Positions 7,119 to 64,000 of a stretch of 64,000 nt of DNA are shown here, in pieces. The stretch's first letter is position 1; the number at the start of each line of letters is the position of its first letter. This stretch comes from Nautilus pompilius (lineage: Eukaryota; Mollusca; Cephalopoda; Nautilida; Nautilidae), in NCBI GenBank assembly GCA_018389105.1, contig JACATO010000604.1:641213-705212 (forward strand), read 5' to 3'. The notes beneath the pieces were generated by a model. It saw only the letters and a program-made list of their open reading frames with translations. It made no database searches and was not told the DNA's origin. Both the position numbers and the translations under genes were made by a program.

Positions 7119-10100
7119 ATGTCTCTACCGATCGAAGTTCCGTGGTTTAGTCTGTGAGTGCAAACGCTAGCGCTTCGTGCAAAAAGTTATTCCACCATTT
7201 TTCTTGTTTTCGTCGCTTACTGATTCACTCCGGTAATCGGCCGAGTGGGTGCACACGGAGTCTTTTTTATTGCGGCGCACGCGCTACGAATGTTGGCAAC
7301 GATTTGCTCCCAGACTTAAGCTCCACGAGTTTGTTCTTCTTATGTACTTTTACTAGCGGTAACTCCCCCCTACTAATAGTAATGGTAAACTCCCCCCCTA
7401 CTAACGTAGGCGACTGGGTAACTAACGAATCTCCCCCCCCCTCCCCCTACTAGAGTAATGGTAACTCCCCCCTACCTAATGGTAACCAAATAGTAATGGG
7501 TAACGCTCCCCCCTACTAATAGTAATGGTAACTCCCCCCTACTAATAGTAATGGTAACTCTCCCCCTACTAACAGTAATGGTAACTCTCCCCCTACTAAT
7601 AGTAATAACAGTAATGGTAACTCTCCCCTACTAACAGTAATGGTAACTTCCCCCTACTAATAGTAATGGTAACTCCCCCCTACTAACAGGGTAACTCTCC
7701 ACTAACAGTCCCCCTACTAATAGTAATAACAGTAATGGTAACTCTCCTCTCCCCCGTTTCTGTTCCTAGACTAGAAACTACAGCAAACGTGTTAACATTG
7801 AATAATAACACTATTTCGGAGGCCAGTTTCTAGTTTTTTTGGAAGGTTGGATGGGTACAACTGATTTTTCAGTAATAGTATGGAACAGTCTGCCTAGTAG
7901 TCAGGTATAATGAGATAGATACATGGCTTTATTTTTTTTAAGTCCCCCCCCCCTCTCTCTCTCCCCCCTATACTCTGCATTTGATGCTGACTAAGGACAC
8001 TTCTTAGCCGGAATAGCTCTGACGACTACTTAGATCTGTAGGTGCTGAGGATAGAGTGAAAACTAAGCTGGTGTTGTGTTGTAGAGCTTAAAAAATCAGC
8101 TTGGTGTGGCTTGTAAATGTTTTTAGTGTGTGTTAATCGCGTGGTTTTAAATTTTTTTGTTTTTTTAAAAAAAACAAACTATGCTAGCTCATAATGTTTT
8201 ACTTTTGCTAATAAATTCATTGGGGAAACTTGCTTTTAAAATGAGTCGTCAAAGGGGCACATTGAATTAATTTGGTAGTTACTACATTTGAGGTTCTTGG
8301 CTTGTGCAAAGGACTCCAAAGAAGAAAAATGGCTATTGCTTCAATTCAAAATTGGTTAATACCATCACTGGTGATTTTATTCCACTCATTAACATTTTTA
8401 TTGCTAAATATATATGTATATATACTGATATCTAACCATGCTTGAATCTGAACCAATTTTTTATTATGACTTATTAATATTAGTGCCTTTAGGAAATCTA
8501 TCTTTGTCCACACTCAAAATCCCTAATTGTTTTTGGGGATTTTATATATGTTCCTGAAGAGTTTGTTTGTTTTTCTTTTCCTTAACTCTGTAGGTTAGGA
8601 AAAAAACTATTAATTTAAAACAGTTGTAGTGAATTAATCTGACTTTGTCACCTATTATTTATTGTTTTGCTGCTGCAGGCCACAAGTTGTGGCCAGGATT
8701 CATAATCATTGAAAAGACCCAGCACTATGGCCTGCCGAACTTGTAAAACAGCCACTTTGATTCGTTAATAGCAATTTTTTTATTACATAACTTGACCTTA
8801 CCAAAATTACCACTTTTATGTGCTTTACATTGAGAAAACTTAGCAGTGAAACAATTAGATTAAAATTGTTTTCAGGTTTAGTGAAAAATAGTATAGTAGT
8901 AATTTGGAAATGTCAAGCTGTAGTCAGTTGTATTTACTGCTGTCACCCTATCCAACTTGTTCTCTTTCATGTGCATAAGTTTTTTTAAAAAAAAATGAAA
9001 AGTGCTTCTGTATATTTATTTTCCACTTTTTTATTAGTGGTAACTTTTTAAAAATATATAGCTTTATCCAACTTTACCTTTTGTGTGAGCATGCATATTA
9101 TCATCTGAAAAATAACAAAATTAAAAGCATTAGTGTTTTTTCTTTAATTTTAAATTTGAGTTAATTTCGTATTAAAATTTTTGCTACTTTAGGTGGAATT
9201 GTTTTTAAATTTAAAAATGTCTTGATTCCTTTGTATTATTTGTACATATAAAGAAAAATTTGTTAGAATTGAACCTTATCACACGATATTAATTATAGTT
9301 TGCAGTTTAATTTCCAACTTTGTGTGAAGTATAACGTTTACATACAGAAGACATTGGCTGTAATAACAGCATCACGTTAAAATTCATGACAAAATTTGTG
9401 AGTTTTTGCTTCATTCACAGGTCACTGATCTGAGCAAGTGAAGTGCAGTGGAAGGATTAGAGCTAGATGTCTAATATGGAGTTTTAAACAGTCTATGAAA
9501 GAGCTTAGTATATGTTAATGAGCAGTTTTTTTGTTGATGGGTCAGTCTTCTGCGTCTGAGAATCTTGTTGTGATGTAACACTGCATTTTGAACTTTGCTT
9601 TTATCTTTATTCAGTTGTGAATTTCAAGAACTCTACCGGGAATTGTACAGCAATGATGTACAGAAACAGAAGCATGCTTTGAGCAGGGTCACTGCCTGGC
9701 GGTGCAGGTAGGTAATCCAATTTTCCACCAGGTTTTGTGGGATCAGAAGAGAGAGACCAGTTTTTTTTGTTTTGTTTTTGTCGAATTTTTAAAATCAATA
9801 GTACCTACTATGCATTGCCAATGGTTTGCATTGCATTTTAGAAAGTATGTAATTTCATTTAACTTGGGTTTCAAATTTGAAAATTTTCCAGTAATTTTTG
9901 TTGTTTTAGATTTTTTTTGTTTTTAATGAAATTTCGTTAAGTCCTTTGGACTTTATTCAATCTTTCTTTCTTTTCTTTTTTTTTTTAAAGCATCAACAAA
10001 AACCTTGTTTTCTAACTGAAGATAGACTGACATATTGGGTTTTACTTAACGATATTAAAATTACTAAACAGTTTTCTTTGTAATAGGTTTAATTCTTGGA

Positions 10101-36391: not shown

Positions 36392-47716
<11,325 letters not shown>

Positions 47717-47960
47717 CTCCCTCCTCAGTAGTGGTCCGCGGCGATCGCTCGCCTCCTGGGGCGGAAGGGGTCATCGCTGGCGGACAGCAGCAGCAGCAGC
47801 GAGGCCGCCTTCCAAGCTTCCATATCGTCTCTGCTCCGCAAACGGCCGCGCGCGAGATCTCGCGAGACGTTGTGGTGGTGGTGGGAGGGGCGAGCTCTCC
47901 TTTTACTTCCTGGTTCGACTGGGTTGTAAGCCGCCATCTGATTGGTCGGCCAAATAAAGC
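47717..47960 (-). promoter_or_regulatory. Regnase CpG-rich promoter
   Basis: The region upstream of the start codon is CpG-rich and lacks an obvious TATA box. Going upstream it holds TCTCGCGAGA (47858-47867), an ETS-like CAGGAAGT (47905-47912), a YY1-like AGATGGCGGC (47930-47939) and a CCAAT box (47941-47945), all given on the gene strand. The start codon itself lies in GAGATGGCGGAAG, close to the YY1/TISU pattern, which would fit a short 5'UTR. The transcription start was not determined. Confidence 0.55.
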
Positions 47961-47999
47961 AACTATCTGGCTGTCGGTCGTGTGTACCTATTACCTCGG

Positions 48000-49832
48000 T
48001 TAACCCTTAAAGTTACATACAACGAAACTTCTAGAGCTAAGAAATATAAACTTAACAGCTCCCACGCCGAATGTGAATAATGGCAAAGGGTTAGAACTAC
48101 TTATCTGTTTATGTCTTCGCATTTCCCGTAAGTTTAACATTATTTTATTTAAGGAACTGAAGGAGGAAGTAGGAGTTTCTGTTCCGTGCGGTACCAAATT
48201 CTTTTTCGGTTAATTGTTCGCCGAATTGGGAAACGGAAGAATATATATATATATATGGGGAAGTCATTAGGATGAATGCAAGACAGATTCTTTCAACAAC
48301 AACAACAAAAAAAACCCCATCGAAAGGGAATTTAAACACCGTTCACAAGCACCTGAGCTTAATAGTTGCGAACACAGAGTTCAGCACCAGGCCATGAAAA
48401 CGATTCTTAAATTAATTAATTAATACTACAAGCACTGGCTACACTTGCTCGTGGTTCGCTCCACGCATCGATGAGTCTATTGCTGAATTTTTGTTTTTAA
48501 GTAATAATAATAATAATAATAATTGTGATATCTAACCCTCCTGGAATCGTGGCTAAGTATTTACTACTTAATGTCTGTAAGCTTGTCCTCTGTGCGTTTG
48601 CGATAGATTGAAAAACAAAGAGACGAAAACTCGTTAATATACACTCAATCAGCTCCCAGAATTAATCTAGTATCTCCATCGGCTTTGGCGAGCCGCACAG
48701 CTCGCCCTATAGGGCTCATAGCAATAATTCCGGGGTAGAAGCGGCTTGGAGAATGTCCAGATTTCTAGAATGCCGACAGACAGGGACAGCGTGGAATCGG
48801 GTTTGGCGAGGGATAGACTATCTGTGATCGAGCATTTCTTATCACCGTAACCAAAGTGACGGAGGAACCTTAGTGCTTCACCGCCACCGTAAGCATCTTA
48901 AGGGCTCCCGATCGCCAGCCTCCCGATGACAAAACTGACTGGAAGAGAGGGAACCAAAAACTAAATCGGAATTTAGAATCTAACAGATCGGGAAGGATCA
49001 GGATCTGGTAAATCGAATTACAATTCCCCCTCCACAGTAGTGACCAAACCGACACCTGGTGACAGGGGGCAATCTCGAGACACTTCTACTACTAATCACG
49101 CGAAAGATGGAGAAATTACCTTCTCTTCTGCCTTTTCACCGATAAACTCTCGGGCTGTGGTATCTAACCCTGACTCTCAATGAAAACACACACACACTGG
49201 CCCCCAGTCTGTAGGGTCTGGTCGGTCTTCTGTCTACGGCTGTTGGCTGAAGTAAGAAGTTCCCTGGGATGGCCGACGGTAGTAATAAAAAAAAGACCCA
49301 CATTAGCCGTAACTTTCTTAGAATTGACAACTCAGCGTTTTGTCCTACTAAAATACCTACAGGTTAATCACATGGACGAGAGTCCCCCTCGTTAACGCTT
49401 AGTCAACTTCCTCGTGACTGTCTGCAGAATGGAACGGTTTTTAGGAAGAAAACAAAAAAGGGTGTGGCTTTCTGTCATCGAACCCGCAGAGACCCCCTCC
49501 CAACTTGTGATGAGTTGGTAAATTCCCGAGTTGTTTGACGGTTAGGGCGCTGAGTGCGATGATGAGCCGGGTTACTAGCGTGGGTGAAGGACAGCTGACC
49601 GCGTTGGTAGGGGGGGATGCTCAGCTGCTGCCTACCCTTGCTAGAATCATTATTATTGTTATTATTAATTATGGGGGAGGGGAGAAAGTTGATTGTTGTT
49701 TCTTCTTCCTTTCAAATATCACTCAAATTTATATATTAAAATCCCTTATCTGATTATAATAATATTGTTAGATAACCTGACAGTACGCTCAGTAGATTTT
49801 TTTTAGCTCCCAAAGCAAGCAAATTCAAACTT
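48000..49832. other. Non-coding flank, no gene seen
   Basis: Only short simple repeats (AT at about 48241, AATT near 48412, AAT near 48505) and a short perfect hairpin near 48689-48708 (GGCGAGC/GCTCGCC) are visible. Confidence 0.5.
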
Positions 49833-49840
49833 TAATAATA

Positions 49841-49877
<37 letters not shown>

Positions 49878-49892
49878 TAATAATAATAATAA
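49833..49892. repeat. (AAT)n microsatellite
   Basis: About 20 TAA/AAT triplets with two small interruptions. Confidence 0.95.
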
Positions 49893-50341
49893 AGATCACC
49901 ACTTTCCTTTTCTGGCTAAAGGTAGCCTAGAGCGCCATCTGTCAGCCACAAGGGGAGAGAAAATACACGGAATAAACTGGGGAGGGGTAGGTTAAAAGTC
50001 GCACTTCCATCGGATATAGTTACAGACGAAGAAATCAAGGCGAACGGGACTAGACAGCAGCGGCTTCATGGAGGAAAGCTCACAGATGATCGTATCCGGG
50101 AGCCGCCGCTGTAAAAGTACGAGGACCCCGGGGGGGGGGGGGGGTGGTGGTGGAACTCACCGAAGCGTGGAATACAGAAGACGAGCTGCGACAAGAGACA
50201 TCAGCAAAAATTCCCCCGACCCTGGAAAGTTCCGAAGAAGAGGGTCCTCGCTTGGAACATTTCCTGTACATAGGAAGGATGCTTTCCAACAGTCAAACTC
50301 CGGCATTTTTGGATGGCCCCTAGATTGTTGCCGGGACAAGA

Positions 50342-50342
<1 letters not shown>

Positions 50343-50401
<59 letters not shown>
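50343..50401. repeat. (AAT)n microsatellite
   Basis: About 20 uninterrupted ATA/AAT triplets, followed by AAG-rich sequence. A run of 13 or so G lies 200 bases upstream. Confidence 0.95.
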
Positions 50402-51305
50402 GAAGAAAGAAAAGAAGAAGAAGATCGGTAATTGAAGAACTCGACAATAAAAAAAATGTCCATAAAGAAAAAAAAAAGACCCAAGTGTAATTGGAAATTA
50501 TTTAACATTTCACCAGTTCCGACTGCCAACCGATCCCCTCCTCTCTCTCCCCCTCTCCACTCCTCTCAAACGAAGGGTGCAGAGGGGTGGGAAAATTCCC
50601 TAAAAGAAGGCGTTGCGTCGTAGTTTGGTCAGAATCGAGAATAGCAACAGTAAAAACAAAGAGCAAGGGGAGATAACCTTTACAAAATCTTTTCTTACAA
50701 TTTGCGTCGCTAAGGTGCGAATTTTCCGGGAGGTAAAAATGATCAAAAGAGAGAATCGTCTTGTTTTTGTTTTCTTTGTAAGTTATGCACGCGCACAGTT
50801 TACGAAGCAATTTTGTTTTATTAAAAAAAAAAACTTATTTAAACGTAATATTTTTGTCGTATATTTAATCTTCGCATCATTTTTAATAATATACTGTTGG
50901 GTTTTCCCCTTGTTGTTGTTGTTTTTCTATAAAAACATTTTAAGGGAGCTAACTCTTGTTTCTTGAAAAAAAAATGCTGTTTATTCCGATCTGTATTGCT
51001 TGCCCTAATATCTCTTTTTCCAGTTTGTTCGAGATTTATTTTTTATCGAACAGTTTATCGATTTACCGACAATTTGCCCTTTGATCCAGATTTCTTATCC
51101 CAGGTGTGAGATTATTATTATTTGTTTAAACCTTAAGCACCGACATGCAGAAATAAGCGGATATTAACGAGGCCAGTGCGAGTCGGTTGGGTGAGCGAGC
51201 GAGTGAGTGAACGAATATTAATGGACCATGCGAGAAAGTAAGTCATACTACAGGACTGCGTGTGCATGCAGTTCTTCCTACTTGGTGGATCTCTCAAGGA
51301 TTTCG

Positions 51306-51425
51306 ATGTCGTCAGTGCGCATTATCCACAAACAAGACAGCAGGGCAGGAACGTTCTTTGTTCTTTCTCTGTTGTTGCTGTTATTTGAAGTGACAGCTGC
51401 AGATGCCGTAGATTTGGTTAATTGA
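51306..51425 (+). other. Possible signal-peptide open reading frame
   Basis: From ATG 51306 the frame reads SRAGTFFVLSLLLLLFEV followed by TAADAVDLVN and a stop. It has a basic N-region, a Leu-rich core and small residues suited to signal-peptidase cleavage. A donor-like GATTTG|GTTAAT lies just before the stop. No downstream exon was recognised; an isolated chance frame is the main alternative. Confidence 0.2.
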
Positions 51426-52078
51426 AACGGGCACTAATGAGGTTTTTGCCAGCCACTCTTAGGGAACAGAGACGGTCGGGAATTAAGGATATAAAAGCTA
51501 AAGAAGGGAAGAGCAGCTTTTGTGTAAAATAAATGGTGAAACTAACGCTTTTATTCTAAAGAATCGTCAGGGTCCGACCCCAGCTGTTTGTTATGCTCGC
51601 TTTCTTGGATGGGAAAAACAAAAACAAAAAAGAAAGCGTATTTGTTGATAAATAGGGTCGGTGTATAAATAACTGGATGAAATCGTAAATTTTACATATT
51701 TCAGGTTAAATCGGTTTTAAAAGTCTAAAACATGAAAGAAATACACACAGCACGTGCATGGATATAAGGTAAGAAATATTTAAAATAATGTTTTCGTGTG
51801 TGTGTGTGTGGCTGTACCAGTATGTGTTAGATGACGTAATATATAGCATTCAGAAGTATATTATGATGTGTTAAATCGACTGCACTGTCAGACTGCTAAA
51901 ATCCCCTCTTTAGGGATCCCGGTGTTCGTGGAATTGGTGTACAACTGTAACACTTACTTTATTGCGTACTCTTTTTTTTTTTTAAATTACTAAACAGATG
52001 CTGAATTTTAAGTTGTATGATAACTTCGTTTTCATGACGCTTTTGCCTTACCTGCGGAAAGCTTTTCCTAAACCGCTG

Positions 52079-52079
<1 letters not shown>

Positions 52080-52118
<39 letters not shown>

Positions 52119-52376
52119 TCCAATTCTCTCTCTCTATGTACCGACGTCATCTCTCTCTCTCTCTCTCTCCATCTCCAATTCTCTCTCTCTATGTACCGAC
52201 GTCATCTCTCTCTCTCTCTCTCCATCTCCAATTCTCTCTCTCTATGTACCTACGTCATCTCTCTCTCTCTCTCTCCATCTCCAATTCTCTCTCTCTATGT
52301 ACCGACGTCATCTCTCTCTCTCTCTCCATCTCCAATTCTCTCTCTCTATGTACCGACGTCATCTCTCTCTCTCTCC
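52080..52376 (+). repeat. CT-rich minisatellite with GACGTCAT core (array A)
   Basis: Five units of about 52-57 bases follow a long (CT)n tract. Each has CTCTCTATGTACCGACGTCA (one copy CTACGTCA), a (CT)n run and CATCTCCAATT. The core resembles arrays B-D. Confidence 0.95.
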
Positions 52377-53098
52377 ACATAAAATGAGCTGGAGAGTTAT
52401 GACATCATCTGCCCACGTCAAAGATGGCAGAGATGAGTAGAAGGGGATAAAAGTAAAGACAGTAAAGAGAACAGAAGCGACGTAGGTGCCACATTAATGT
52501 GCGATAGGAAAAACAAGAGACTTTTGAATAATTGATATAGATGCGAGGCGGAGGGAAGGAATCCATTTAAAGAAACCAGCAAGGCAGGCAGATTGTAATA
52601 TATTTTGAACATCATTTCTTCCGACGAAGGTGAACTTTCAGTCAAAGGAAAAAAAAAATTAACAATCGAGTAAAAATAAAGGGCTAACAAAAAATGGGGG
52701 GGGCTTGGAGTTGTCTCCCTTGGAAGGTAAAACGCACTACGAGGTAAAATGGCGTGAACGACTTGGAATTCCTTCACATGTAATCACAGGGGATCTCTTT
52801 GGAGAGAGGTTCTTGTTGTTGTTTCAGGTAAGTACACATAAATTAAGTACCTTGTGGCTGATGAAGCAGCCATCGTGGATATCCAGCCACTAAGTAGACA
52901 TTAAATTAATTCCCCGGGTAATTTTGTACAAACTGAAAACTAAATTTTATAAGCGTTTAATATTTCAGGTAGAAGACGATCGATTAATTGTTGTTGTTGT
53001 TGTTGTTTTGGGGGGGTCAGGGTGCATTGATGTGAGGTAGATTTCTAATTTCAAATCATCCGTGACCGATGATGGAGCCAAATTTTGAAACAATAGGG

Positions 53099-53230
53099 GC
53101 GTTCGAGTGAAACCCGGTCGGATGCTATTTCGGGCCGGGTCTCCTTTCGGGGAGGACTGGGGTACCGGAACTCCGGGTTTCTGGGAGCACCAGCCCCGAG
53201 TGAAACCCCGACAAGCGGGTCTTATGGTAC
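53099..53230. repeat. GC-rich imperfect inverted repeat
   Basis: GTTCGAGTGAAACCCGG near the left end faces CCGGGTTTCTGGGAGCAC near 53172-53190. A further GAGTGAAACCCC copy lies at about 53198. It resembles the inverted repeat at 63450 and may be a small dispersed element. Confidence 0.35.
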
Positions 53231-53961
53231 GGTCTGGGACCCTGCTGATGTTCGCTCGCCCCACCCCCATACAAACACACACACACCAGTTAAGGGGGGA
53301 GCTTATTAACAGACAAACAAAGAGAAAAGGAAGCATATAATTCCCACCCTGTCTATATTACACACACACACACATATATATATATATTGCGTAAGACTAG
53401 GAAGCGAATACATAAAAATTCGCAGTGTCATCCATTTTCCTGGAAATCATATTACAATCGATCAAAAGAGAATTAAAAAAAAATAATAATAGACAAAACA
53501 GTCGATAGAAATCAAAACAATAAATCTCTTTTACACATCGCTTATAAATGTCAATCTTCCACCCGTTGTGTTTGTTCTGATGAAAGAAGCTAATAAACCC
53601 ATATTTTCTAGGAATATTTGTATATGTGTATATATATGCGTGTATGCGTCTTTTATTCTAAGCTGTATTGAAACATCCATTGCTTGAATTTATTTCATGC
53701 TAAACTTATTTCAAAACGCTATAATATATATATATATATATATTCCCTCTAACACTTTCAGATCCGTCTCGTTCGGTCGTCATTGGAAAGGGCTGTTCGA
53801 ATAACGGAAGAAAAAGAGCTCGGCGAATGGAAATAGTGAAATGTACATGAAGCGAATAACTTTCTGGCGAAACAGACGGCGAGAAAATTAAAGATAATGA
53901 TCGAGAAAACTCCGCGATTAATTAACAGAGAGGTACAATCATGGCGACAATTTAACAGGCC

Positions 53962-54017
<56 letters not shown>
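53962..54017. repeat. (AAT)n microsatellite
   Basis: About 19 uninterrupted TAA triplets. Confidence 0.95.
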
Positions 54018-54706
54018 GCTGAACAGTGCATGAAGTATAAGAAGCGTTCTGAGTATTCAGGGACAGGAGGAATAGCGGGAGGGGAAAACTACTTCCAAAG
54101 TAATTCTAACGAGCTTAGGTAGGGGCCATGGCAGCTCTCCTGTCGAGAAAACCATAAACGGATCCGTGAGAGTCATTGCTGTACGGCTGGCTCCTAAGAG
54201 CTGGTCGGGAAGGATCGAGACACGTGGAAAAAAAAGTAAATAGATATTTCTTATGCGAACCCCCCTAATTGCCGACCGCGGCCGCCCCTATTCAACCCCC
54301 TGAAACCGAAATTTTTAAGTGACATGTTCAGAAAACCCCGCGGACTCCTGCGATCGTCCCACTTTACTGGTAGAAGTGGGGGACGAAGTTTGTTAAAGTA
54401 CCATCCGGTTGCCTGAGGTGGGCACAAACAAACATCCAATTGTGGCCGCTAATTAAACGAATTCCTGACGAGTTCTGTCTCGTGCGGTTTGCCAAGTTGT
54501 TTTAATGAAGCTTTTTTTTTTTTTTTTAAAGTGGAGGGGAAATTCATAGGCTTCGAATATAAACAGATACAACTTTCTGGGAATCCGAATAACGGGTATA
54601 AAAAACATTAAGCATCTTTTTTCCGGTACTTAACCTTACGCGAGAAGTTAATCCGCTCGTTTACCACAAGTTTTTGCATATTTGTAACTACGTTTGATTT
54701 CCTCTT

Positions 54707-54707
<1 letters not shown>

Positions 54708-54760
<53 letters not shown>
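54708..54760. repeat. (AAT)n microsatellite
   Basis: About 17 uninterrupted TAA triplets. Confidence 0.95.
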
Positions 54761-56461
54761 GTTTAGGCCGTTATTGGGTGGCGTTGGTGACATTTATCGT
54801 AAGAATATGGCCTACTTTCAAACTATTGGAATCGATATCATCAACAGCGCCAATATGAATAAATAGGAGAATCGTAGTTATCTTCCCTGTACGCTGGCGT
54901 ATCGACACGAAGGTACGTCCACCAGGTGGACGCAATACTACACCGCAATTTATCTTCCGGTGTGAGAATTCCCATTTCTCTTCGCTCCGAAGTACGGCTC
55001 CGTTATCAGAAGGATTTGCAGCAACCGAACGGATATATCCAGAATTTAGATAAAATTATATTTTTAAAAGCAAAATAGAAGAACGACGACACCACTTCTT
55101 TTGCCATTGGGTTGGATGATATCTTACAGACTTTGTGGAAAATGGGTTTGTTTTTTTTTTGTTTTAAATTATTTATGGTACTAAATAAATAATACATTTA
55201 TTCGTCGCATTTTTCACTCACTAAGAGAGTATCCTGATGTGTGTGATTGGAGTCACAAGGCAGTATTTGATTTTTTTTTCGTCCTCACCCTAATAAACTT
55301 GAATATTAATGTCTACAAATGCTATAGAGAAAAAAAAAGACATCGAGGCAGATCTGTCCCGTTTGCGTATTTTTTTTAGATAGACTGTTGAAACATTCTC
55401 AAACTTGTCTGACGAAAATACACATTTCTCCTTGAAACGTTGTTCCGGAAAAATAACTTGGAAGGATGCTACGTAATATTATAGAGAAAAACAAGAAACC
55501 TGCGGGGGGGGCGACGAGGAGGATGAACTATGGTATGCCAATTTGGAAAAGAGAGAAATGACATTGAAAACAAATAATTTATGAAAAAAAAAAGATAAAT
55601 GTATGTCTTTACTCTTTTTTTGGAAATTCAGACACGCTCCTAAAGGAATTTCTTTCTTTTTTTGTAAATGGCATTGGTATACACGAGGAGGGAAATCAGA
55701 ACAACACAAATTTTGAAGAAGAAGAAGAAAAAAAAAGCACTAGCCGTTACCTTGGTCAGGTTTGGCAACAGAAAATCTCTCCAGCGCGTCCGTCCAGGCA
55801 GCAAGAAAGTTGTTTGGTTGGTGGAGCCCTGCGGCCGGCTAATAAATACATGTGGTCGGGGGCTAGAGCAGAGGTAATTTTAACAACGGTTTCTCCAGTC
55901 ATCGCTGCATCATACGGAGGCTGTCCTGGGTCGTTGTGATTAGTGGTTTATCCTGTTCCCACGGTGTGATGGGGCTACCACTGCTTTGTTGTTGATGTGT
56001 TCTTTTGTCCCTTTTGTGTGTGTGTGTGTGTGGATTCTAAAAAGTCTGGAAGTCATATTGTATGCAGAGAAAGAACGAATGACGGGGTTGTTTACACTGA
56101 TACAGAGATGGAGGCTGCATGGTCGTGGTGGGGGGTGGGTGGTCGGGAGACAAACCCAGGGCGCTCGAGGAGGAGGGGGGGGCGGTATTTTGTGACTGTT
56201 ACTTCCGGAAGATTTTTTAATGACGCGTATCTTACGCAAAATCACTTCAGTAGCCACTCCTTCCTTCTCTGCTCCCCTCCTACTTAACCCTCGACATCCT
56301 TCTCAAGGACCACCACGCATATAAGACACTTGACAATTGCGCGCCATCTACCGGCTCACACTTCCGTTTATAGCGCTTTTTGATCGCCCGTCCGTCGCCG
56401 CCGACCGTTTCCCAGCCCTTTTTTGTTTTGTTTGTTTGCTTTCTTAATTCTATAATTTGCA
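54761..56461. other. Non-coding flank, no gene seen
   Basis: Only short simple repeats, such as the GT run near 56016-56031, and chance frames are present. Confidence 0.5.
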
Positions 56462-57135
56462 TTTGCTCTCTCTCTCGGTAATGACGTCATCTCTCCTTCC
56501 CCCCCTCTCTCTCTCTGTAATGACGTCATCTCTCCTTCCCCCTTCTCTCTCTGTAATGGCGTCATCTCTCCTCCCTCCCCCCCCTAATCTCGGTAATGAC
56601 GTCTCTCCCTTCCCCTTCTCTCTCTCTGTAATGGCGTCATCTCTCCTTCCCCCCTCTCTCTCTGTAATGACGTCATCTCTCCTTCCCCCTCTCTCTCTCT
56701 GTAATGGCGTCATCTCTCCTTCCCCCCTCTCTCTGTAATGACGTCATCTCTCCTTCCCCTTCTCTCTCTCTGTAATGGCGTCATCTCTCCTTCCCCCTCT
56801 CTCTCTGTAATGACGTCATCTCTCCTTCCCCCCTCTCTCTCTCTGTAATGGCGTCATCTCTCCTTCCCCCCTCTCTCTGTAATGGCGTCATCTCTCCTTC
56901 CCCCTCTCCTCCCCCCTCTCTCTCTGTAATGACGTCATCTCTCCTTCCCCTCTCTCTCTGTAATGACGTCATCTCTCCTTCCCCCCTCTCTCTGTAATGA
57001 CGTCATCTCTCCTTCCCCATTCTCTCTCTGTAATGACGTCATCTCTCCTTCCCCCCCTCTCTCTGTAATGACGTCATCTCTCCTTCCCCCCTCTCTCTCT
57101 GTAATGACGTCATCTCCCCCCTCTCTCTCTCCGGG
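56462..57135 (+). repeat. CRE-bearing minisatellite (array B, 18 units)
   Basis: Eighteen units of about 34-47 bases have the form CTCTCTCTGTAATGACGTCA followed by TCTCTCCTTCCCCC. Eleven carry the full CRE palindrome TGACGTCA, six carry TGGCGTCA and one is cut short (TGACGTCT). A- and G-type units alternate in the first half, giving a higher-order period of about 71 bases; the last six units are all A-type. Confidence 0.95.
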
Positions 57136-57571
57136 CGCGGCGCGGGTGGGGGGGGGGACGAAGGGACGGAGGAAGTGGAAAGTTAGGTTTTGGTGACCAC
57201 AACAGTAAACGTGGCGGGAATTAATGAACCGAGTGAAAACGAGAGAGTGGCATCCGGGTGACGGGAGCAGTGACAGGTCGACACGACCGTGTGTGTGTGT
57301 GTGTGTACCCCGTCCTCGTTCATATATATTAAAAAATTCAAGTTTCCGAGAGGGAGAGATAACTTCACCTTTGTTTCTAAAGGTCAATCGCCGCGTACCG
57401 ATATCTCGTTAGCGCACTCAGCGTTTCCCCGACGGACCTTTTCAAACTGTTACTCTCAGGTAATCGGCAAGACGCGAGCGACGCCCCCCGAACCGAGAGA
57501 ATGCCCGCAAATGTATTTCCAAACTTTTTAAAAAAAACAATTAAAAGTAACGGGCGGTGGGGTGGTCCCTC

Positions 57572-57577
57572 CCCTCA

Positions 57578-57609
<32 letters not shown>

Positions 57610-57611
57610 TG
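57572..57611. repeat. (CT)n microsatellite
   Basis: CT dinucleotides with one interruption. Confidence 0.9.
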
Positions 57612-58276
57612 TCTTAAAAGCAATACCTAGGTGTTGGGATTTGTATTTGCATCCATCCTTACTCACCTGCGCAGTTATTCGTATCGAGTCCCGCGGCTGC
57701 CTCGACAGGCCCAGCGAGCACGAGTGGACAATGGGAAAGCCGAACGAACTCGGGTACAATGCAGGCAGTGTCTTAACCAGGTGGACAAGTCGTTTTATTT
57801 ATAACACATTTGAGCACGAACGGCGTGCTTCCGGTGATCTGACCCGCGTGTCAGCTCTGGATTAGTGTTATAGAGGAATTTTAGGGCCCGGGGAACGTTC
57901 TCCTTTGTTATCCGTGTCTGTCTGGTTTGCGGGGTGGGGGGGATAAATAAATAAATATCTTTACATGGTTTCTCAGATGGAGGAGCTGCCTCGTGTCGGT
58001 GAGCGATTCCATTCTCTAATAATCATTTATCCCTTTAAAAAACAAAAAAATAAAAACAAAAAAAAAATATTCCCGGCGATATGAAGAGTTAATGGTTGGA
58101 AGTTTACGGCATCAAAGTAAATAATGGGGAGCGGTGGGAGGGCACCACGACACACCAGACAAAGCAAACACAAGATTATCGCGGTAATCATCTGGCCTGA
58201 TTCTGTTTCCACAGCCCTAGAAGAGCGGGTTCGTACGAGTCTAGCATCGTGACACACGGGACATTCTGTAGAGACG

Positions 58277-58545
58277 TGAGAGAGAGAGAGAGAGAGAGAT
58301 GACGTCAGTAGTACACACAGAGAGAGAGATGACGTCAGTACAGAGAGAGAGATGACGTCAGTACAGAGAGAGAGAGATGACGTCAGTACAGAGAGAGATG
58401 ACGTCAGTACAGAGGACGTCAGTACAGAGAGAGATGACGTCAGTAGTACACACAGAGAGAGAGATGACGTCAGTACAGAGAGAGAGATGACGTCAGTACA
58501 GAGAGAGATGACGTCAGTAGTACACACACACAGAGAGAGAGAGAG
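58277..58545 (-). repeat. CRE-bearing minisatellite (array C, about 10 units)
   Basis: Units of about 20-31 bases read GAGAGAGATGACGTCAGTAC on the + strand, some with an added GTACACACA spacer. Nine carry TGACGTCA and one GGACGTCA. Read on the minus strand the core is CTGTACTGACGTCATCTCTC, the same as array B apart from one or two bases, so the array is inverted relative to A and B. Confidence 0.95.
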
Positions 58546-58919
58546 GCGGGGGCGAGCATTTTCTTTTGTATCTAAGCGACCTCAGCGCTGGAGAAATCAC
58601 TCCGGCGGAGGACGCATCTGCAGCAAAAGCGGTGCGGGTCGAAGTCAGGCCGCTTGCAACCTTCATCTTATTTGCCAAACTTTAATTAGACTTCAGCTGT
58701 TTCTACCCGTTTTTTTTTCTTTCTTTCTTTCTTTACGACGATCACTGGCAATTCGACAATCAGTAACAAAAGAAAACGTTCCCATAATGCGACGCGGCGG
58801 AAGTGAACCTTTACCCGTTCGACTCTAGTGGAACATGGATAAACGTCGGCTTGTGACGACTGGCTCCACAAATGAAAACCGCAAATAGAACAATGTAAAC
58901 GATTAAAGCATAAAACAAA

Positions 58920-58921
<2 letters not shown>

Positions 58922-58971
<50 letters not shown>

Positions 58972-59180
58972 ACGTCAGTACAGAGAGAGAGAGAGAGGGT
59001 GGAGAGATAGAGATGACTTCAGTACAGAGAGAGAGAAGAGATAGGTGGATAGAGAGAGAGATGACTTCAGTACAGAGAGAGAGAGAAGAGAGAGGGTGGA
59101 GAGAAAGAGAGAGAGATGACGTCAGTACAGAGAGAGAGATAGAGAGAGAGATGTCGTTAGTACACAGAGAGAGAGAAGGT
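58922..59180 (-). repeat. CRE-like minisatellite (array D)
   Basis: A long (GA)n tract is followed by five units containing GATGACGTCAGTACAGAG or the variants GATGACTTCAG (twice) and GATGTCGTTAG. Spacing is about 35-56 bases. It has the same orientation and core as array C but is more diverged; two units keep a perfect TGACGTCA. Confidence 0.9.
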
Positions 59181-59283
59181 AGGTTAAGATGACTATTTAA
59201 ATGAAAACTGTCTTTATCTTGTTGTATGGTTCCACAAAACAAACTTATGGAGATACGTTTGTTTGAAAGCCGTTATATATATT

Positions 59284-60854
59284 CAGGTGCATCTCAAAAA
59301 ATTAGAATATCGTGGAAGAGTTCATTTTTTTCCGTAATTTAATTCAAATAGTGAAACTTTCACATATTCTAGATTCATTACACATAAAGTGAAATATTTC
59401 AAGCCTTCTTTTGTTTTAATTTTGAAGATTACGGCTGACAGTTCATGAAAATCAAAATCCACCGTCTCAAAATATTAGAATATTTCATAAGATCAATAAA
59501 AGGAAAAAGGATTTAATATAGAAAATGTCGAACTTCTGAAATAATGTTCATTATGCACTCAATACTTGGTCGGGGCTTCCTTTTGCACGAATCACTGCAT
59601 CATTGGGGCGTGGCATGGAGGCGATCAACCTGTGGCACTGCTGAGGTGTTATGGAAGCCCAGGTTGCTTTGATAGTGGCCTTCAGCTCATCTGTATTGTT
59701 GGGTCTGGTGTTTCATCTTCCTCTCGACAATGCTCTCTATGGAGTTCGGGTCAGGCGAGTTGGCTGGCCAATCAAGCACAGTAACGCCGTGGTCAGCAAA
59801 CCAGTTATTAGTAGTTTTGGCACCGTGGGCAGGTGCCGTGTCCTGCTGGAAAAGGAAATCAGCATCTCCATAAAGCAGCTTGTCAGCAGACGGAAGCATG
59901 AAGTGCTCTAAAATCTCCTGGTAGATGGCTGCGTTGACTTTGGACTTGATAAAACACAGTGGACCAACACCAGCAGATGACATAGCAACCAAAATCATCA
60001 CTGACTGTGGACACTTCACAATGGACTTCATCAAGCAACATGGATTCTGTGCCTCTCCACTCTTCCTCCAGACTGTGGGACCTTAATTTCCAAATGAAAT
60101 GCAAAACTTACTTTCATCTGAAAGAGGGACTTTGGACCCACTGAGCAACGGTCCAGTTCTTTTTTCTCCTTAGCCAAGGTAAGACGCGTCTGACGTTGTC
60201 TCTGGTTCAGGAGTGGCTCGACACTATGAATGCGACACTTGTAGCCCATTTCCTGGACACGTCTGTGTGTGGGTGGCTCTTGATGCACTGACTCCAGCCT
60301 CAGTCCACTCCTCGTGAAGCTCCCCCGAGTCCTTGAATCGGTTTGCTTGACAAATCCTCTCAAGGCTGCGGGTCATCCCTCTTGCTTGTGCACCTTTTCC
60401 TACCACACTTTTCCCTTCCAGTCAACTTTCCGTGAATATGCTTTGATGCAGCAATCTGCGAACAGCCAGCCCTTTCAGCAATGACCTTCTGTGGCTTACC
60501 CTCCTTGTGGAGGGTGTCAGTGAATGTCTTCTGGACAACTGTCAAGTCAGCAGTCTTCCCCATGATTGTGGTTGTCTGTACTGAACCAGACTGAGAGATT
60601 CGTGGTATTTACACCGCATAAACAGTGATTTACTCAAACTCGAAATGGGATATTCTAATATTTTGAGATACGTTTTTTTCTATTTTCATGAGCTGTCGGC
60701 CGTAATTATCAAAATTAAAATTAAAATATGCTTGAAACATTTTAGTTTACATTGTAATGAGTCTAGAATATATATACAACTTTCACTTTCTGAAATAACT
60801 GACGAAGAAATATCGAACTCTTCCACGGTGTTCTAATTTTTTGAGATGCACCTG
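59284..60854 (-). mobile_element. Tc1/mariner element with IR/DR-type long terminal repeats
   Basis: The element starts CAGGTGCATCTCAAAAAATT and ends with its reverse complement. The terminal repeats are about 200 bases (59284-59483 and 60650-60854). Each has an outer and an inner copy of a CTCAAAA-ATTAGAATAT motif, the IR/DR layout of Tc1 elements in which transposase binds twice per end. TA follows the right end; TT stands in its place on the left. The internal transposase frame is on the minus strand. Confidence 0.92.
59520..60563 (-). pseudogene. Tc1 transposase, frameshifted
   Basis: The start is MGKTADLTVVQKTF at 60563. The N-terminal helix-turn-helix part includes HKEGKPQKVIAERAGCSQ. 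The DDE catalytic region keeps SDESKF, FQQDTAPAHG and SPDPNSIES, but in different frames. Shifts occur near 60365, between about 60270 and 60140, and after the SDES block, so no active enzyme can be made. The overall length and motif order match full-length Tc1 transposases of about 340 residues. Confidence 0.85.
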
Positions 60855-62239
60855 TATGTCTTTTTTAAAAAAACTATATATATATGTGCAGCGAGACGCC
60901 ACTTTAGAAGGGAACACGGTTTGCATGAATCGTGAATCTTAACAACAAGAAGACAAAGAGTTCAATGGCCGCCTTGGACATTTCCAGATCTTTATTCCCT
61001 CTTTTTGCCCTTTTCTGTTTTTGCCGCTACCGCTACTCATTAGGCTTTTTATCTTTTAAAGAAATCGTTAAGCTTGCTTACATAAGATCTCCGAAAAGAA
61101 CGGTGGATGTACGTCGGTCAGAAATAAGACGGTGTCAGGTGGTGTTGCCATTTCCATTTCTTAGAAAATTAGTTAGAAAACAACAACAAGTTATTTCGTT
61201 ATGTTGATGGTTTACTTCTTGCTATCTATTTCATATCTTAACAAAAACTGATTTATAGTCGTTTTACTGTTGCTGTAGTCTTAGCAAAAATGTTCTTAAT
61301 TGACGCCTCTCCTGTCAGTTTTTTTTTTATTTATTGGAAATAAAGGTGTGTCTGGAGGTCAGGTGGCCAGGTGCGAGGAACAAGCGAGTGGAGTCTTGTT
61401 TTGCTCTGTGGTATCGTTAAGGTAAAGTTCTTAAGTTTGCTTACCTGAACATTCGGTAAGGTTCTAAAACGAGGGAGGTGAGGGGTGAAAGAAAAAGGGA
61501 GAGAGAGACTGGGGGATAAAAGGGGCGAAACACTAAAGGATGAGAAAAGAGTAAATATCCGTGACTTTCTCTGTGTAGGTTGTTGTCGACTGGTAGAGAC
61601 GGACAGATTCTTCGACAAGAATTGGAGAGGGGGTGGGGGACAGTTCTCTGTTGGCGCCAGTGGTCCAGTAGGCTACTGGAATACTACGGTCGACAGCCAA
61701 AGTTCGACTTCCGGTTGGGACTGATGCAGTTCTGGCATACGTACCGCTCTGGCTACGGGCTTCCTTTCGCTCTTCTTCAACGGCTGTCGCTCGGGTGCCA
61801 GGCTCCCCTGTGGACATCGTCGACGAGTCGTCGTAATGGCAAGAATTCTAAACCTGGGCGCGCCGAACTTGAGCGAGAACCTCTGGAAGATGGCTTTACC
61901 AGAATTGAGCGGAACGAGAGATCTCTCCTCCCCCAAACTGACGTCACGATGACGCAAAACTCATCTTAATTCGCAGGCAGCGTCTTTAAAACCCGAAGAG
62001 TTAATCCGGCATAATCCAGTTTCACCCTGTAACTTATCAGGATTTTTTGTTTCAGCATCTCTGGTTCCTGCCTTTGGTAAACTGTTCTCTTAATTGCCGA
62101 TCACTGGCGATGTAAAAGCGCTCTATATGTGCTAATAATTTATTCAAACAAAAATCACTAATTCGTCCATTTATACTCCGTCACGACTGACTGAATTAAC
62201 TTTAAAAATATTAAACTTTCTTTACTTTTCATGTTTTCA
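60855..62239. other. Non-coding flank, no gene seen
   Basis: Short chance frames overlap on both strands at 61480-61970, but none has a recognisable domain or splice context. Confidence 0.45.
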
Positions 62240-62880
62240 AAATCAAAAAGTGTGAGTGAGTTTATATGAGTGCGATTCCGCGTGAGTCTATGGGAATATG
62301 TGGGAATCTGTGAGAATATGCGAGAGTTCAGAGTGAGTGAGAAGTTGGCATGCGTATGGACGTGCACGAGTGTGAGTGCAGAGAATAACCGTTAGTGTTG
62401 GTGAGTTCATGTGTGAGTATGTCTGAGACTATGCGAGAGTGAGTGAGAGTTTGGTCTGCGGATATGCGGGAGTATGAGTGCGTGAAAGTATGCGAGAGTT
62501 CAGAGTGAGTGAGAAGTTGGCATGCGTATGGACGTGCACGAGTGTGAGTGCAGAGAATAACCGTTAGTGTTGGTGAGTTCATGTGTGAGTATGTCTGAGA
62601 CTATGCGAGAATATGAGTGAGAGTTTTGATCTGCGAATAGGCGGGGATAATGAGTGCGTGAAAGTATGCGAGAGTTCAGAGTGAGTGAAGAAGTTGGCAT
62701 GCGTATGGGACGTGCACGAGTGTGAGTGCAGAGAATAACCGTTAGTGTTGGTGAGTTCATGTGTGAGTATGTCTGAGACTATGCGAGAGTGAGTGAGAGT
62801 TTGGTCTGCGAATATGCGGGAGTGTGAGTGCGTGAAAGTATGTGTGAATCCGTGAGAGTGCTGAGTGAGTGAGAGTATAC
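62240..62880. repeat. 172-176 bp tandem repeat, about 3.3 copies
   Basis: The marker CGAGAGTTCAGAGTGAGTGA begins at about 62321, 62493 and 62669; a degenerate fourth copy begins near 62841. Units are themselves rich in GTGAGT/GAGTG sub-repeats. Small indels separate the copies. Confidence 0.92.
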
Positions 62881-63449
62881 TTTACTGCCAATGAATAGTT
62901 ATTATCTAGCACACCAGATAATTTTGGGGGTGAATCATTATTACGGCGTCTTTAAAAAGAAAATGCCCATTTTTAGAAAGACTTAATAATCTAATTAAAA
63001 CAGCAGTGTTCAGGTTTCCAGATAAGATAACAGGATATATAGGAGCAAAAGGCTTACAAATCAATATAAATATCTCAATATTCGTCGTCAGAACAGATTA
63101 AATGTCATGGGGATAGCCTTCGAACCGTAGCAGGGGATAATAACGCTTAACGTTTGTTGTTTGTTTTGTTCTGTAGAGATGACGAACCGCACATAGACCG
63201 GAGATAAGTTTCTAAAATATCCCTTAGTCGACACAAAGTCCGCGTCTTGGTTTCTACCAGAGTTTAAGATGGATTACGGTTTGTGTTTTTTTTTAAACTA
63301 GAAAACGTCAATTTATGAGACGGCCCCTTGTCGTTCCTGACTTCCCGAACCGAATCGAGTCGGTGAGGGGCGGTGGGTGGAGTGGATGACGGGGACGGGA
63401 AACGGGTCGTTAATTAAAGGTATGAACATGACACCTGCTGTACTTGGAG

Positions 63450-63522
63450 CGTGTTCATGGTCAAACCCGGCCACGAAATACCATCGACGTCAGGATGTCC
63501 GGCCGGGTTTCATTTGAACACG
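63450..63522. repeat. Inverted repeat (hairpin) with AAACCCGGCC arms
   Basis: CGTGTTCATGGTCAAACCC... at 63450-63472 faces GGCCGGGTTTCATTTGAACA... at 63501-63522. The arms match except for a central four- or five-base patch, with a 28-base loop. Confidence 0.7.
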
Positions 63523-63954
63523 GGTCGTCAAGGCAGAAACGAAGAGTTCCATCAAGCGGACGGGGACATTCCCAAAGAAACGGCTCCGTTCTCCTCGGTT
63601 TGCGCCTGGTTTTTGCTAAATCCTCGCTCGAGTTTGCTACAGTGGACGGACGTCATCCCCCTGTTCGTTAACGATGCGATGATCCCATATTGTTCCGCTA
63701 AAAGATCTTCCTTCCTTTTGCCTGGAACCGCCAGTTCTTGGTTCTTCAGTTGGTTCGAACAAACGGACTGCAGACCCCAACTCTCGCGACGGACGATTCT
63801 TTTAGATTTCGTTCTGAAGGCTTCTCGCCAGACGACATTCTGATTGACGAAACCTGGCGGGGAATGCGGGAACCTCTGGTGTTTGTGTCCGCCCAGCCAT
63901 GTTACTGAACCAACCTCGGGCGTTAGAAAAATACCGGTAGTAGTTTTCGCCTGT

Positions 63955-63956
<2 letters not shown>

Positions 63957-63989
<33 letters not shown>

Positions 63990-64000
63990 CTCTCTCCATC
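63957..64000. repeat. (CT)n tract at window edge
   Basis: About 20 CT units run to the end of the window and finish in CTCTCCATC, the same word found in the array A units. A further array may follow outside the window. Confidence 0.85.

What the first reader, a model, noticed from the sequence alone, without database searches (positions are those of the whole stretch)
52080..59180. Four related minisatellite arrays built around a CRE palindrome, upstream of Regnase
Seen: arrays at 52.1, 56.5, 58.3 and 59.0 kb share a core CTCTCTGTAnYGACGTCATC embedded in CT/GA repeats. About 22 units hold a perfect TGACGTCA, the consensus site for CREB/ATF-type factors. The arrays differ in spacers and unit length, so they look like separate expansions of one seed, not one broken array. 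Inference: they could act as a dense CREB/ATF binding platform or methylation-sensitive element 4-12 kb upstream of the Regnase start, or as a purely selfish repeat. The retention of the octamer while spacers vary is the point of interest.
Basis: partly seen in the sequence, partly recalled or inferred. Interest (0 to 1): 0.72.

Follow-up and report, generated by a model that had tools for sequence, protein, structure and literature searches.

The report
Genome-wide CT minisatellite carrying CRE sites
Four short repeat arrays near an immune-regulator gene turn out to belong to a large family of similar arrays scattered through this animal's genome, each built on the same binding-site-like DNA word, so that probably most copies of that word here sit in repeats rather than in gene switches.

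Summary
Four arrays (52,079-52,375; 56,466-57,132; 58,278-58,546; 58,922-59,179) hold 38 units, 22 with a perfect TGACGTCA.

They are not particular to Regnase. The own genome (727.6 Mb) holds 30,964 exact copies of the core GTACTGACGTCA against 250 for its reversed string, and 93,914 TGACGTCA. I extrapolate roughly 6,000 arrays.

The 28 arrays read share one plan: CT tract, units of GTACTGACGTCA(T/TA)+CT, CT tract, in unrelated flanks, without target-site duplication or shared carrier. The core is strand-locked: 0 reversed cores between CT tracts genome-wide against 18,592 forward placements.

Octamer retention is partly right. Genome-wide it changes about 7.5% per site against 14.8% for the adjoining GTAC, but on the first contigs the two are equal, and array 1 has no perfect octamer.

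Best reading: a CT-anchored, dispersed, probably selfish minisatellite family, copied between or with CT tracts and then expanded locally. A CREB/ATF role at Regnase is unproven. Recombination-driven (M26-like) spread through the CRE is the boldest open reading.

The parts
52079..52375 (+). Array A1: 5 units of about 53 bp, core GTACCGACGTCA (one unit GTACCTACGTCA), spacer CT plus CATCTCCAATT; no perfect TGACGTCA
56466..57132 (+). Array A2: 18 units of about 36 bp, core GTAATGACGTCA, spacer CTCTCCTTCCCC; 11 perfect octamers, 6 TGGCGTCA partly alternating with TGACGTCA (71-bp higher-order unit), 1 truncated
58278..58546 (-). Array A3: 10 units of about 15-30 bp, core GTACTGACGTCA (some TACTACTGACGTCA), 9 perfect octamers; the CT strand is the minus strand
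58922..59179 (-). Array A4: 5 units of about 32-55 bp, core GTACTGACGTCA, 2 perfect octamers, 2 TGAAGTCA; adjoins a long pure CT/GA tract
47500..64000 (.). CpG-rich domain (CpG observed/expected about 0.7-1.4, except about 0.5-0.6 over 59-61 kb, where a Tc1-like element lies) that contains all four arrays; the window ends at the contig end
36392..47716 (-). Regnase/ZC3H12 gene (UBA_6, NYN RNase, weak CCCH finger and Regnase_1_C exons). The start ATG near 47,716 is inferred from an open frame only. The arrays lie about 4.4-11.5 kb upstream of it

Best explanation
The four arrays are members of one genome-wide family of CT-anchored minisatellites. The module is a CT/GA tract carrying the 12-bp core GTACTGACGTCA, and core plus CT spacer is repeated in tandem. 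Shown: about 31,000 exact cores genome-wide and one fixed orientation of the core on the CT strand; in the 28 arrays read, ends in CT tracts, unrelated flanks, no consistent target-site duplication, array-specific spacers, and composite units shared by several loci. Inferred: pieces of array move between loci by copying that is guided by, or travels with, the CT tract. This could be ectopic gene conversion, template switching, or re-integration of excised circles at CT microsatellites. Each new seed then grows locally by slippage or unequal exchange. The arrays are most likely neutral or selfish DNA. The embedded CRE octamers may bind CREB/ATF-type bZIP proteins as a by-product, and as a genome-wide sink, rather than as a designed switch for Regnase.
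For: Strand lock: forward core between CT tracts 18,592 placements (some units counted twice); reversed core with the same gaps 0. Structure of 28 arrays (4 in the window, 24 in 20 loci taken from the start of the capped list): 28 of 28 start and end in a CT-rich tract, with no consistent target-site duplication. 3 of 56 flanks of up to 600 bp match other fetched DNA over 60 bp or more, none as a shared carrier. TCATATCTCTCCTGACGT, part of a composite unit, occurs in 5 of 28 arrays, so pieces longer than one core have moved. Within-array similarity exceeds between-array similarity. Of 20 arbitrarily placed 400-bp pieces, 2 (L061, L073) touch arrays of the family.
Against: The spread mechanism was not observed: no empty or pre-insertion site was found (one locus tried, right flank only). 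Core-free CT runs exist too (9 of 40 pure CT/GA runs of 20 bp or more in the window and 20 loci lie outside the arrays), so CT tracts are not always colonised. Genome-wide the octamer is kept about twice as well per site as GTAC, which a purely neutral repeat need not show. Array ends were drawn from CT runs and cores, so the CT ends are partly a matter of definition.
Confidence: 0.6

Rival explanations
1. The arrays are a regulatory platform: clustered CRE sites bind CREB/ATF factors and control Regnase (and, elsewhere, other genes), and selection keeps the octamer.
For: 22 perfect octamers about 4.4-11.5 kb upstream of the inferred start; CpG-rich, presumably open domain; genome-wide the octamer changes about 7.5% per site against 14.8% for GTAC.
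Against: The core occurs about 31,000 times in the genome. Array A1 has no perfect octamer, and 16 of 38 window units are broken. In the sampled units the central G is the most variable octamer position. On the first contigs octamer and GTAC vary alike. No expression or binding data could be consulted.
Confidence: 0.1
2. A non-autonomous transposable element carries the CT-core array, for example as the tail of a short retroelement or inside a Helitron, and transposition disperses it.
For: Many dispersed copies with fixed orientation of core to CT. Mobile elements with a conserved core beside a simple repeat are known (mini-me/DINE-1).
Against: CT-rich tracts abut unrelated flanks at both ends of 28 of 28 arrays, with no consistent target-site duplication. 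No shared carrier sequence beside the arrays in 56 flanks.
Confidence: 0.15
3. M26-like drive: a germline bZIP factor bound to the CRE opens chromatin and provokes recombination breaks, and repair against other CT tracts copies and expands the array, so the octamer powers its own spread.
For: Genome-wide the octamer is the better kept part of the core, and some units keep it without GTAC (93,914 octamers against 30,964 full cores). In fission yeast the CRE-like heptamer ATGACGT bound by Atf1-Pcr1 makes a meiotic recombination hotspot (PMC9775316, passages).
Against: No recombination data. PMC9775316 notes that a TGACGTCA inside ade6 is not bound by Atf1-Pcr1 and does not help recombination. 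No animal precedent appears in the listed papers (10 of 39 listed, 12 of 20).
Confidence: 0.12

Closest known systems
Dispersed euchromatic satellite TCAST1 of Tribolium castaneum (PMC3411249, PMC5844308, PMC4537270; search listing and abstract starts only)
   Same: A tandem-repeat family partly dispersed in euchromatin, with a proposed influence on nearby genes
   Different: TCAST1 is the major pericentromeric satellite; here the unit is a 12-bp core in a CT microsatellite, with a CRE octamer and strict orientation. Whether a pericentromeric source exists was not tested
mini-me / DINE-1 elements of Drosophila (PMC2374699; passages)
   Same: Dispersed sequence with a conserved core associated with a simple repeat
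   Different: mini-me/DINE-1 has subterminal inverted repeats, a core of 33 to over 90 bp and a preference for T-rich targets; I saw no common element sequence outside core and CT, and did not run a separate search for inverted repeats at the array ends
Micron, microsatellite-targeting transposable element of rice (title only, in the reference list of PMC2374699)
   Same: By its title, associated with microsatellites as targets
   Different: Called a transposable element; here no element beyond core and CT was found. Its details were not read
ade6-M26 / CRE meiotic hotspot of fission yeast (PMC9775316; passages)
   Same: CRE-type sequence; an example of a bZIP site that stimulates recombination
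   Different: A single heptamer in a yeast gene, not a dispersed array; hotspot activity is untested here

Membership tests
Dispersed minisatellite / euchromatic satellite | Head-to-tail units of about 10-100 bp in arrays | tested here: met
Dispersed minisatellite / euchromatic satellite | Same family at many unlinked loci with unrelated flanks | tested here: met
   for many places; for the flanks of 28 arrays
Dispersed minisatellite / euchromatic satellite | Units more alike within than between arrays | tested here: met
   0.56 against 0.36, 13 usable arrays of 14 given
Transposable element (TIR, SINE, Helitron, DINE-1-like) | Target-site duplication | tested here: not met
   28 arrays, 25-bp flanks; longest shared word 7 bp (once), no consistent one
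Transposable element (TIR, SINE, Helitron, DINE-1-like) | Shared element sequence beside the array | tested here: not met
   3 of 56 flanks match anything else fetched over 60 bp, not in a common arrangement
Transposable element (TIR, SINE, Helitron, DINE-1-like) | Terminal inverted repeats, autonomous partner | not tested
   no separate search was run
CREB/ATF cis-regulatory module of Regnase | Consensus CRE sites clustered upstream | tested here: met
   (22 of 38 units)
CREB/ATF cis-regulatory module of Regnase | Octamer conserved beyond its surroundings | tested here: inconclusive
   Genome-wide 7.5% against 14.8% per site, but 5.8% against 5.1% in the first 100 listed, central G most variable in the octamer, and A1 has none intact
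CREB/ATF cis-regulatory module of Regnase | Factor binding, open chromatin, effect on expression | not testable with these tools
   no functional data held
M26-type recombination hotspot | bZIP-bound CRE that raises recombination | not testable with these tools
   motif present; activity not measurable here

The most novel reading that the evidence does not exclude
The CRE octamer is the engine of the family. A germline CREB/ATF-type factor binds it, opens chromatin and provokes breaks, and repair against CT tracts elsewhere copies the array. The repeat thus spreads by hijacking a transcription factor and has come to hold most consensus CRE sites of the genome, acting also as a genome-wide sink or rewiring source for CREB/ATF signalling.
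Probability: 0.12. Interest if true: 0.85.

Novelty: new variant of a known kind. Interest (0 to 1): 0.52.

Why it matters
A transcription-factor consensus site has been multiplied by a tandem repeat until, by my estimate, most of its copies in a 728-Mb genome lie in that repeat. That gives a natural test of how a bZIP network copes with tens of thousands of extra sites. It also tests whether a protein-binding motif can drive the spread of a minisatellite, and how tandem repeats colonise microsatellites without a transposase. In practice, it warns that motif scans for CREB/ATF targets in this genome would mostly find repeats.

Tried and rejected
Search for the core in papers: the six core strings gave 0 papers. 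Four shorter strings gave 6 papers whose listings look unrelated. Terms for CRE minisatellites (12 of 20 listed), cephalopod tandem repeats (9 of 9), mini-me-like elements (7 of 7) and euchromatic satellites (1 of 1, 8 of 14) gave no listed paper that describes this family. That is not proof that it is unpublished.

Other collections: 9 stretches of IMG/VR contigs match GTANTGACGTCATCTC. Each has one match, without a CT tract before it, so I took them as chance. The bacterial/archaeal collection gave 0 matches to a longer pattern. No Rfam family at gathering score and no tRNA in the window, so no tRNA-derived SINE that these tools recognise.

Carrier transposon not supported, for lack of common flanks or target-site duplications. 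One attempt to find a paralogous empty site, with the right flank of L053, found only the locus itself and 7 weak partial matches of its far part. The left-flank query did not complete.

Preference for CpG-rich DNA, first taken as a finding, now left open. Arrays found by an intact core sit in CpG-rich loci (17 of 20, against 4 of 19 arbitrarily placed 400-bp pieces, one low-complexity piece, L070, dropped; Fisher p = 9e-5; with it counted, 5 of 20, p = 3e-4). The loci were judged on 10 kb or on 4 kb of flank and the pieces on 400 bp; cut into 400-bp pieces, the array loci give 78 of 100 rich. The bait contains a CpG, so survivorship may explain it. For survivorship: the 2 of 20 arbitrary pieces that touch the family without such a bait are both CpG-poor, and in L073 both cores read TGACATCA. 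Against it: the decayed core GTACTGACATCA counts 3,947 (control 161) against 30,964 intact. The other decay product was not counted, and the non-CpG control GTACTAACGTCA did not complete. Over 28 arrays the relation between flank CpG ratio and octamer decay was nil (Spearman 0.02), but only 3 arrays lie in CpG-poor DNA. In those 28 arrays one-step octamer variants were 42 CpG decays (2 sites), 19 other transitions (6 sites) and 36 transversions, against 229 intact; many are shared by descent.

Octamer test, first forms: local scans gave 0.067 against 0.104 (255 units) and 0.056 against 0.127 (350 units, bootstrap difference 0.016-0.122). Both are biased because units lacking most of the octamer are dropped, so the whole-genome counts are the better evidence.
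Full report
What was checked. The window holds four tandem arrays at the stated places. The octamer TGACGTCA is found 24 times against 0.41 expected, 22 of them in the arrays. Counting units by similarity to GTACTGACGTCA gives 38 units: 5, 18, 10 and 5 in A1 to A4, with 0, 11, 9 and 2 perfect octamers. A3 and A4 carry the core on the minus strand.

Genome-wide extent. The window lies in an assembly of 727,640,739 bases in 2,558 contigs. The 12-mer GTACTGACGTCA occurs 30,964 times against 250 for the reversed string. The octamer occurs 93,914 times, against 19,528 for the reversed palindrome of the same composition. Of the first 100 octamers listed, which lie in the first 161 kb of one contig, I counted by eye 91 in clusters of two or more. 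That contig is richer in the family than average (100 of the 12-mer in its first 0.73 Mb, against 43 per Mb genome-wide). I therefore put the share of the genome's consensus CREs that lie in arrays at roughly two thirds to nine tenths (estimate). The first 100 listed 12-mers form 20 clusters (by eye). About 5 per cluster suggests some 6,000 arrays with the canonical core (extrapolation from that contig). Of 20 arbitrarily placed 400-bp pieces, 2 touch the family: L061, a diverged array, and L073, the edge of an array with decayed cores.

Anatomy. I read 28 arrays: the four in the window and 24 in 20 fetched loci of 9.1-10 kb, which I took from the start of the capped list. All 28 begin and end in a CT-rich tract that abuts unrelated sequence. 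The marks I used to draw array limits were CT runs and cores, so an array could have ended at a core, but none did. The longest word shared between the 25-bp flanks was 7 bp, with no consistent target-site duplication. Of 56 flanks of up to 600 bp, 3 match other fetched DNA over at least 60 bp (E up to 1e-5, self-matches removed): a Tc1-like inverted repeat in the window, and two old repeats near L049 and L053, none in a common position relative to the array. The most widespread interruptions of CT tracts in the sample are GTACTGACGTCA (41 times, in 17 of 21 sequences) and GTACTGACGTCATA (39 times, in 11 of 21). The core is strand-locked: between CT tracts the forward core has 18,592 placements (overlapping placements counted) and the reversed core 0 with the same gaps.

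History. Units resemble each other more within arrays than between arrays (0.56 against 0.36; 14 of 28 arrays given, 13 usable). Parts of composite units recur in several arrays; for example TCATATCTCTCCTGACGT is in 5 of 28. So pieces longer than one core have moved between loci, and then each array expanded on its own. Pure CT/GA runs of 20 bp or more number 40 in the window and 20 loci (263 kb), 31 of them inside arrays; AC runs number 8 and AT runs 2. CT tracts without the core therefore exist, though these loci were chosen for their arrays.

Is the octamer specially kept? With the octamer left free, CTCTCTGTAC(8N)TMTC matches 17,034 times (control 269). With GTAC left free, CTCTCT(4N)TGACGTCATMTC matches 17,325 times (control 0). 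With both fixed there are 9,119 (control 0). So the octamer is intact in 53.5% of units with GTAC flanks (about 7.5% change per site over 8 sites). GTAC is intact in 52.6% of units with the octamer (about 14.8% per site over 4 sites). Large subfamilies count many times in such numbers. In the first 100 listed, 62 have an intact octamer and 81 an intact GTAC, which gives 5.8% and 5.1% per site, so no difference on the first contigs (by eye). In the biased local sample of 350 units, the octamer changes at 5.6% and GTAC at 12.7% per site, and the central G of the octamer at 15.4%.

Chromatin context. CpG observed/expected is 0.1-0.6 over most of 1-47 kb, apart from patches at about 6.5-8, 28-30 and 36 kb. 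It is about 0.7-1.4 from 47.5 kb to the end, except about 0.5-0.6 over 59-61 kb, where a Tc1-like element lies. Of the 20 array loci 17 lie in CpG-rich DNA, against 4 of 19 arbitrary pieces (one low-complexity piece dropped; Fisher p = 9e-5; with it, 5 of 20, p = 3e-4). This need not be a preference of the family, because the bait contains a CpG. The two arrays met without that bait, L061 and L073, are in CpG-poor pieces, and in L073 both cores read TGACATCA. On the other side, the decayed core GTACTGACATCA counts only 3,947 (control 161) against 30,964 intact cores, so most recognisable copies have not decayed in this way. I leave the question open. That CpG-rich means unmethylated in the germline is inference from general knowledge.

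Gene context. The minus-strand gene at 36-48 kb is a Regnase: UBA_6, Zc3h12a-like NYN RNase, a weak CCCH finger below its curated score, and Regnase_1_C. A start codon near 47,716 is inferred from an open frame, which puts the arrays about 4.4-11.5 kb upstream. With so many arrays elsewhere, this position needs no special explanation. I could not test whether the family as a whole lies near genes, since no annotation is held.

Species. Not given. A published Nautilus pompilius assembly of 730.58 Mb (PMC8257504, passage) is close in size to this one. I did not verify the species, and size alone proves little.

Mechanism and rivals. The fixed orientation of core to CT, the CT ends, the absence of duplications and of a carrier, and the shared composite units together favour copying that is guided by CT homology, or that moves core and CT together, over insertion of a transposon. 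Which process does it (gene conversion, template switching, circle re-integration) is not shown. Retention of the octamer leaves room for a role of bZIP binding, either in regulation or as a driver of recombination like the CRE-type hotspot of fission yeast (PMC9775316, passages). The same passages warn that a CRE in ade6 is not bound by Atf1-Pcr1 and does not help recombination.

Known or new. Dispersed euchromatic tandem repeats are known (TCAST1, listing only), as are mobile elements with simple repeats (mini-me/DINE-1, passages). I found no paper on this core, with the limits of that library and of the capped lists. I file it as a new variant of a known kind.

Noticed in passing
47,500-64,000: A long CpG-rich domain starting at the Regnase 5' end, against strongly CpG-depleted DNA on the other side; the CpG ratio falls to about 0.5-0.6 only over 59-61 kb.
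   Followed up: partly
59,281-60,857: Tc1/mariner-like element: inverted repeats of about 200 bp, 80% alike (59,281-59,483 and 60,650-60,857), and a DDE_3 fragment on the minus strand.
   Followed up: no
38,073-38,629: Three copies of a 186-bp unit, 97% alike, beside the CCCH-finger exon of Regnase.
   Followed up: no
7,441-7,747 and 62,310-62,842: Unrelated minisatellites: about 26/115-bp units, and 172 bp x 3.1.
   Followed up: no
G000:C7:150,339-151,820: 24 copies of the CpG-decayed core GTACTGACATCA in 1.5 kb; whether intact cores lie among them was not seen. L073 covers its edge and has no CpG in 400 bp.
   Followed up: partly
L061 (G000:C1:270,001-270,400): A 400-bp piece placed without regard to the repeat lies inside a diverged ATAC-type array of the family.
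   Followed up: partly
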